A DNA stretch of 48,891 bases, taken from contig SLKC01000032.1 in NCBI GenBank assembly GCA_007134775.1, positions 1 to 48,891 of the forward strand, written 5' to 3'. This DNA comes from Ectothiorhodospiraceae bacterium (GTDB lineage: Bacteria > Pseudomonadota > Gammaproteobacteria > XJ16 > Halofilaceae). The translations under genes were made by a program, and so were the position numbers. Position 1 is the first letter of the stretch. The number at the start of each line of letters is the position of its first letter. Below, one piece after another: positions 28,291 to 28,699 of this stretch. A model generated the notes under the pieces. That model saw only the letters and a program-made list of their open reading frames with translations, did not search any database and had not been told where the DNA came from.

Positions 28291-28367
28291 TGGCGCGCCC
28301 GACAGGATTCGAACCTGTGACCTTCGGCTCCGGAGGCCGACGCTCTATCCGGCTGAGCTACGGGCGC
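28291..28367 (-). tRNA. tRNA-Arg (anticodon CCG)
   Basis: A 77-base cloverleaf on the minus strand: acceptor GCGCCCG paired with CGGGCGC, D-arm, anticodon stem TCGGC/GCCGA with loop CTCCGGA (CCG, reading CGG codons), T-arm ACAGGTTCGAATCCTGT, discriminator G and an encoded CCA. Confidence 0.95.
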
Positions 28368-28379
28368 GATGCGGGATTC

Positions 28380-28408
28380 ATGATACGCACGGCGTGAATG
28401 GGCGTCCA
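28380..28408 (-). promoter_or_regulatory. Promoter of tRNA-Arg(CCG)
   Basis: On the minus strand TGGACG (28403-28408) and TATCAT (28380-28385) are 17 bases apart, placing the start about 5-6 bases before the tRNA 5' end. In the decayed second copy the -10 has changed to GATCAT and the -35 is lost. Confidence 0.6.
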
Positions 28409-28454
28409 CGTCTCGACGCCTGTCCAGGTGAAGCGCTGCCTGGGGGCAGCGCTG

Positions 28455-28603
28455 GCCCGACAGGATCGACTCGGGCCATCCTGGCCCTCGCCCTGCGGGC
28501 GCCTCCCTGCGGTCGGCGTCCAAATCGGCAGTCCTGCCGATTTGTCGAACCTGTGACCTTCGGCTCCGGAGGCCGACGCTCTATCCGGCTGAGCTACGGG
28601 CGC
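28455..28603 (-). pseudogene. tRNA-Arg(CCG) pseudogene split in the T-loop
   Basis: Bases 28545-28603 are identical to the first 59 bases of the intact tRNA (28309-28367), covering the 5' acceptor strand, D-arm, anticodon arm and half of the T-arm. Upstream, identity continues for 28 more bases with two mismatches. On the 3' side only 12 bases (28455-28466, gcccgacaggat) match, separated from the 5' part by about 78 bases. The acceptor end is degenerate and the promoter is lost. It cannot form a functional tRNA. Confidence 0.85.
28467..28544. repeat. Palindrome-bearing insert inside the tRNA-Arg pseudogene
   Basis: About 78 bases interrupt the T-loop of the second tRNA copy. The end next to the tRNA 5' part (28521-28544) is a 24-base inverted repeat with arms caaatcggcag and ctgccgatttg and centre TC. 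CGA occurs at both junctions (28467-28469 and 28546-28548), which may be a short target duplication or part of the tRNA loop. Confidence 0.6.
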
Positions 28604-28699
28604 GATGCGGGGTTCATGATCCGCACGGCGTCGGCAGGCGTGGGCTCGATAACCCTCGGCGCCCCAGGGGGCGTAGCGCCGCTGCGGCAGTTTCAGCGT

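What the first reader, a model, noticed from the sequence alone, without database searches (positions are those of the whole stretch)
28291..28631. tRNA-Arg(CCG) duplicated and the second copy split in the T-loop by a palindrome-bearing insert
The second copy keeps the first 59 bases identical, plus 28 upstream bases with two changes (including the -10 box), then is cut by about 78 bases ending in a 24-base inverted repeat, after which 12 bases of the tRNA 3' part resume. Integrases usually duplicate the tRNA 3' end; here the 5' part is retained, which is unusual. A small palindromic mobile element with a tRNA-like target, or a REP-like repeat, would explain it.
Basis: partly seen in the sequence, partly recalled or inferred. 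Interest (0 to 1): 0.6.

Follow-up and report, generated by a model that had tools for sequence, protein, structure and literature searches.

The report
tRNA copy split by hairpin element
One of two neighbouring arginine tRNA genes has been cut open in its T-loop by a small hairpin-rich DNA element of the sort found in E. coli's long-known 'tRNA-linked repeats', and the same arrangement recurs at other tRNA genes in related bacteria, which hints at how those repeats arise.

Summary
The insert (28467-28544) has one close copy in its own genome, but it belongs to a dispersed four-hairpin family: a model built from 21 cores hits 121 of 274 genomes of the class. The family includes the core of E. 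coli tRNA-linked repeats (TLR; Rfam RtT): the model hits the E. coli rrnB repeat at 52.6 bits. Of 198 cores examined, 81 lie within 400 nt of a tRNA or tmRNA, against 0 of 40 control places. Most sit downstream of an intact tRNA, many followed by a copy of that tRNA's own tail, broken at T-loop TTCGA^A. The window shows a rarer form: a tRNA copy that keeps its 5' part, cut by a core, then an intact copy. I found it at ten further loci, one a tRNA-Gln of the same genome, cut in T-, anticodon or D-loop after pyrimidine-G-A. Best reading: exact insertion of a TLR-type core into one of two tandem tRNA genes, tolerated because the other is intact; the 5' part was later copy-corrected. What moves the core is unknown. 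Known kind, new variant.

The parts
28291..28367 (-). intact tRNA-Arg(CCG)
   Evidence: ARAGORN; Rfam tRNA 72.1 bits
28380..28408 (-). promoter-like site of the intact copy, TGGACG-17-TATCAT
   Evidence: consensus scan; 9 of 12 matches, no proof of function
28432..28453 (-). inverted repeat just after the resumed tail (9-nt arms AGCGCTGCC / GGCAGCGCT)
   Evidence: read directly from the sequence
28455..28466 (-). 12 nt of the tRNA 3' part (nt 60-71) that resume after the insert
28467..28544 (-). 78-nt hairpin core of the TLR/RtT type, inserted in the T-loop
   Evidence: model R1 88.8 bits, but the window is one of the 21 sequences it was built from; independent blastn matches in 20 of 94 genomes; fold z -4.15
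28521..28544 (-). 24-nt palindrome, first hairpin of the core
28545..28603 (-). tRNA-Arg(CCG) nt 1-59, 5' part of the split copy
   Evidence: 59 of 59 identical to the intact copy
28604..28631 (-). duplicated upstream stretch, 26 of 28 identical, with weakened -10-like box
   Evidence: no promoter-like site found here

Best explanation
The locus held two tandem tRNA-Arg(CCG) genes. A small dispersed hairpin element, of the same family as the cores of the tRNA-linked repeats (TLR, Rfam RtT), inserted between TTCGA and ATCC in the T-loop of the upstream copy, without target duplication. The downstream copy stayed intact and supplies the tRNA, so the insertion was tolerated. The 5' part of the split copy has since been kept identical to the intact copy, most likely by gene conversion. 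Shown: the family, the exact break, its recurrence at other tRNAs and in other loops, the ancestral core in a congener, and the shared state of both copies at a variable base. Inferred: the order of events, that the core moves, and by what. My guess for the insertion step is an enzyme acting in trans on single-stranded DNA beside pyrimidine-G-A, in the manner of IS200/IS605 or RAYT transposases (their manner is recalled, not tested); that part is weak.
For: Exact insert of 78 nt at TTCGA^ATCC. Same plan at ten more loci: Gln-TTG of the same genome, Arg-CCT, Ser-CGA in two congeners (T-loop); Ser-CGA twice (anticodon loop); Ser-GGA twice and Ser-GCT (D-loop); a decayed Arg-CCG copy in G001. Breaks in three loops are hard to get by recombination with a downstream repeat, which carries T-loop flanks. 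81 of 198 cores within 400 nt of a tRNA/tmRNA against 0 of 40 control places; tail matches its own neighbour above all tRNAs of other amino acids in 51 of 81. Same core at different tRNAs of one genome, each with that tRNA's tail (G001). Left flank TCGA in 48 and TTGA in 7 of 67 distinct tRNA-adjacent cores. At tRNA-Met the core is inverted, as a target read as TTGA^A on the other strand predicts. A homologous core stands at the same place in G001, yet tRNA nt 17 is C in both window copies and T in G001 and G002. R1 hits the E. coli rrnB TLR at 52.6 bits.
Against: 117 of 198 cores have no tRNA within 400 nt, some of them cut short by contig ends. 28 of 66 downstream cores have no clear tail. 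The Rfam RtT model does not list the window insert even at E<=10. No enzyme is tied to the cores: Y1 transposases co-occur only weakly (90 of 121 genomes with cores against 84 of 153 without, Fisher p 0.001, not corrected for kinship or genome size; 31 genomes with cores have none). Perfect identity of the 5' part could also mean selection. No empty first copy was seen, so the order 'tandem pair first, insertion second' is inferred.
Confidence: 0.7

Rival explanations
1. The split copy is a selected RNA. Its transcript folds as a tRNA-like stub with hairpins and serves as a regulator or processing decoy, much as proposed for the E. coli 5S-linked repeats that bind Hfq and CsrA in vitro.
For: 5' part identical to the intact tRNA in nearly all measurable split copies; stems with changes on both sides in 13 of 21 pairs; nearly fixed strand; 5S-linked TLRs are transcribed, processed and bind Hfq and CsrA (PMC8144298, introduction and passages).
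Against: In the window the split copy has no promoter-like site while the intact one has; the copy is decayed in G001 and not seen in G002; gene conversion explains the identity equally well.
Confidence: 0.17
2. By-product of recombination: a tRNA followed by an ordinary tRNA-linked repeat was duplicated, then the T-loop sequence of the tRNA recombined with the T-loop sequence of the repeat, joining the 5' part to the core.
For: Congeners G001 and G002 carry a normal TLR-like core downstream of the same tRNA; tandem arrays exist.
Against: Split copies in anticodon and D-loops cannot arise so; the resumed tail in split copies is only 10-16 nt, not the 18 nt of a repeat; in G001 the upstream and the downstream core differ, the upstream one being nearer to the window core.
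Confidence: 0.08
3. Remnant of a phage or island integrated at the tRNA by a site-specific integrase.
For: Integrases often cross over in the T-loop (recalled); a tyrosine-recombinase ORF lies between two inverted cores in G064.
Against: The same 69-84-nt core recurs at D-, anticodon and T-loops. Relatives of the G064 recombinase are found in 71 of 94 genomes, about two per genome, as housekeeping recombinases would be, and 0 of 14 such loci had a tRNA within 900 nt of their middle. The long copy here is the 5' part.
Confidence: 0.03

Closest known systems
tRNA-linked repeats (TLR) of E. coli / Rfam RF00391 RtT
   Same: Same hairpin core (R1 52.6 bits at rrnB, 17.8-21.1 bits at tyrT, unfiltered search of 3.3 kb); same break TTCGA^ATCC in tRNA-Tyr; tRNA sequence resumes after the core.
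   Different: Here the core lies upstream of the intact tRNA, inside a copy that keeps tRNA nt 1-59, and only 12 nt of tail resume instead of 18-19. The Rfam RtT model does not list it.
Rickettsia palindromic elements (RPE)
   Same: Small hairpin elements inserted inside genes, RNA genes among them (tmRNA and RNase P RNA; PMC2229807, passages).
   Different: No sequence comparison was made; other lineage; RPE are known mostly from protein genes (recalled).
REP sequences / IS200-IS605-type non-autonomous elements
   Same: Hairpins, no target duplication, insertion beside a short fixed sequence on one strand (features recalled).
   Different: No enzyme tied to the cores; weak co-occurrence with Y1 transposases.

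Membership tests
[quoted passage not shown]
   12 nt of tail, and the intact tRNA is downstream
tRNA-linked repeat (TLR) | shares the hairpin core of known TLRs | tested here: met
   R1, built from the window core and 20 relatives, hits E. coli rrnB at 52.6 bits and the four tyrT repeats at 17.8-21.1 bits
Rfam RF00391 RtT | score over the gathering threshold of 45 bits | tested here: not met
   window stretch not listed at E<=10; relatives L306, L307, L305 and L309, whose places score over it, overlap R1 hits
REP/RAYT or IS200-IS605-derived element | tied to a Y1 transposase | tested here: inconclusive
   overlap 90 of 121 core genomes, odds ratio 2.4, p 0.001; 31 core genomes without Y1
REP/RAYT or IS200-IS605-derived element | fixed short sequence at the left flank and no target duplication | tested here: met
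   TCGA or TTGA in 55 of 67 distinct tRNA-adjacent cores; exact joints
integrase-borne island remnant | integrase gene nearby and tRNA 3' end restored by the element | not tested
   ORFs of the window were listed but not searched for an integrase; the long copy is the 5' part, not the 3' end

The most novel reading that the evidence does not exclude
The cores of tRNA-linked repeats are a mobile hairpin element of this bacterial class that enters tRNA genes after pyrimidine-G-A, on the RNA-like strand, in the D-, anticodon or T-loop. The repeats known since 1978 are its remains: their 18-19-nt tail is simply the tRNA from the T-loop break to CCA. Split copies such as this one are the early stage, kept alike to the intact neighbour by copy-correction.
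Probability: 0.4. Interest if true: 0.75.

Novelty: new variant of a known kind. Interest (0 to 1): 0.58.

Why it matters
tRNA-linked repeats have been described since 1978 and are said to have no known function (PMC8144298). A form that still shows the whole 5' part of the tRNA, with breaks in three different loops, gives a testable origin for them: insertion at a fixed short sequence in tRNA genes. It explains the length of their tRNA tail and predicts where others will be found, for instance among partial tRNA copies beside intact tRNAs.

Tried and rejected
Close copies of the insert: none in plasmids or phages, none in viral contigs for a 29-nt exact pattern, one full match in the own genome. 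The Rfam gathering search of the window found only the tRNA. Idea that cores lie in the loop of any hairpin: not supported outside tRNAs (4 of 80 at or over the 95th percentile of permuted flanks). Idea that tRNA loops as such are preferred: not needed, since 134 of 148 pyrimidine-GA^A sites in 101 tRNA sequences lie in loops anyway. Idea that the tyrosine recombinase of G064 moves cores: its relatives are near-ubiquitous. Named relatives through the neighbouring protease (21 loci, 20 Halomonas-like or soda-lake proteobacteria, one Corynebacterium): no tRNA-Arg(CCG) in the 20 loci scanned, so no further synteny. Literature: searches; in the listings and in the passages opened I saw nothing that places TLR cores in a T-loop break; the word T-loop is absent from PMC8144298. 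Bosl and Kersten 1991 is not held, and the 1978 and 1999 papers were seen only as cited.

Rows dropped: of the matches, three under 24 bits were left out of the tables and places seen twice were merged, giving 198 cores in 59 genomes. The loci come from the listed top (more matches were not listed), plus earlier hits and five RtT places, so the counts describe that sample. R1 was built partly from tRNA-linked cores, which may favour them. One search used only cores of 45 bits or more with 45 nt of flank. Three split-first loci (L240, L308, L143) were not resolved by the script and were read by eye; the 3' joint of L308 is unclear.

Full report
Observation. The minus strand of the window carries, in order of transcription, a 28-nt upstream stretch, tRNA-Arg(CCG) nt 1-59, a 78-nt insert, 12 nt of the tRNA 3' part, a 59-nt spacer, the same 28-nt stretch with two changes, and the intact tRNA-Arg(CCG). 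The break is TTCGA^ATCC in the T-loop and is exact. The insert folds into four hairpins, better than all of 200 shuffles. A promoter-like site was found for the intact copy only.

The insert in its own genome and in relatives. In the 3.06-Mb genome (201 contigs, unnamed) the insert has one full match. Of 94 genomes searched, the own one included, 20 have matches at E<=0.01. Of 29 loci scanned, 18 hold a tRNA or tmRNA gene. Reading them showed a recurring plan: intact tRNA, terminator-like hairpin, TTCGA, core, then the tail of that same tRNA.

The family. A covariance model R1 was built from 21 cores, the window's among them; 13 of 21 pairs have at least one sequence with both sides changed. 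R1 matches 121 of 274 genomes of the class at E<=0.001. It finds the repeat in E. coli rrnB at 52.6 bits and the tyrT repeats at 17.8-21.1 bits. Rfam's RtT model matches 21 of 94 genomes at E<=0.01, 6 over its cut-off; of those six places five were fetched and R1 overlaps four (one of the four only at 23.5 bits). E. coli has 22 tRNA-linked repeats at ten loci, each ending in 18-19 bp of the upstream tRNA or rRNA, with no known function (PMC8144298, introduction read).

tRNA association. From I collected 198 distinct cores in 59 genomes. 81 have a tRNA or tmRNA within 400 nt: 58 downstream on the same strand, 15 upstream on the same strand, 8 downstream on the other strand. Control places in the own genome: 0 of 40. 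The sequence after the core matches the neighbouring tRNA's tail better than that of every tRNA of another amino acid in 51 of 81. 23 of 58 downstream same-strand cores have a perfect tail, and 38 of 66 downstream cores score 24 or more; 28 of 66 therefore have no clear tail. Of the 39 cores with a clear tail, 35 are on the tRNA strand and 4, all at tRNA-Met, are inverted; its TTCAA T-loop reads TTGAA on the other strand.

Split copies. Eleven loci, the window included, show a core inside a tRNA copy that keeps some or all of its 5' part, followed by an intact copy. T-loop: window Arg-CCG, Gln-TTG of the same genome (L304), Arg-CCT (L214, G117), Ser-CGA (L251 of G229 and L266 of G113, one genus). 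Anticodon loop: Ser-CGA in L230 (G260) and in L141 (G021, three tandem split copies). D-loop: Ser-GGA in L301 (G001), Ser-GCT in L240 (G092), Ser-GGA in L308 (G024). A decayed Arg-CCG copy stands in L143/L106 (G001). The 5' part is identical to the intact copy in nine measured cases (59/59, 57/57, 59/59, 70/70, 70/70, 37/37, 38/38 twice, 22/22) and less so in the first unit of L141 and in the decayed copy; L308 has 3 mismatches in 22 by eye. Every readable break follows pyrimidine-G-A. That alone explains the loops: 134 of 148 such sites in 101 tRNA sequences lie in loops. After the core 10-16 nt of tRNA resume and then the sequence diverges.

Age and homogenisation. In G001 and G002 a cytochrome c gene related to the window's (43% and 39% identity) stands upstream of this tRNA. 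G001 keeps a core like the window's at the upstream place, so the split seems to predate the two species. Yet tRNA nt 17 is C in both copies of the window and T in G001 and G002, so the split copy has followed the intact one. I read this as gene conversion; selection on the stub, or a fresh duplication with a fresh insertion, are the alternatives.

Dispersed cores. 117 of 198 cores have no tRNA within 400 nt. Of 80 distinct ones examined, the last two bases of the left flank are G in 63 and A in 74, and the flanks pair no better than permuted ones. Some sit at the 3' end of serine recombinase genes, two around a tyrosine recombinase ORF. So the core is not merely a by-product of tRNA duplication, but I could not name its enzyme; Y1 transposases co-occur only weakly.

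Conclusion. The finding is best read as a T-loop insertion of a TLR-type core in the first of two tandem tRNA genes. By the stated definition it is not itself a tRNA-linked repeat (tail and position fail), but it carries the same core at the same break, and with its ten counterparts it suggests an origin for them.

Noticed in passing
L304 (G000:C51), core 701-773, minus strand: A second split tRNA in the same genome: tRNA-Gln(TTG) nt 1-57, core, 11 nt of tail, a perfect hairpin made of that tail and its complement, then an intact tRNA-Gln.
   Followed up: yes
L141 (G021), 1371-1882: Three tandem tRNA-Ser(CGA) copies, each cut in the anticodon loop by a core, before the intact gene; unit of 217 nt.
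   Followed up: partly
L126 4373-4446, L205 701-774, L223 1720-1793: Cores with the same left flank in three genomes; in L126 the core overlaps the 3' end of a serine recombinase gene (Pfam Resolvase and Recombinase).
   Followed up: no
L125 (G064) 5881-6968: A tyrosine-recombinase-like ORF lies between two inverted cores, the first overlapping its 5' end.
   Followed up: partly
L311 338-413 (E. coli K-12 rrnB): The repeat after 5S rRNA is a strong R1 hit; the core there lies between GTAGGA and ACTGCCAGGCAT of a 5S 3'-end copy. This stretch is, from memory, part of the rrnB T1-T2 cassette of many cloning vectors.
   Followed up: partly
L064, L068 between tRNA and core; L124 (tyrT): Between the tRNA and the downstream core there is an inverted, partly decayed copy of the tRNA's T-arm or 3' end, read by eye.
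   Followed up: no
L129 2944-3020, L254 2867-2942: Cores that appear to lie inside protein genes; reading frame and empty homologues not checked.
   Followed up: no
L045, L050, L057, L063, L068: Sub-threshold Rfam sX4 matches cover tRNA-Ser genes and their flanks; the sX4 family may be partly tRNA-Ser-derived.
   Followed up: no
window 28700-28727: Promoter-like site TTTACC-16-TATAAT on the plus strand before the cytochrome c-like gene 28782-29288.
   Followed up: no
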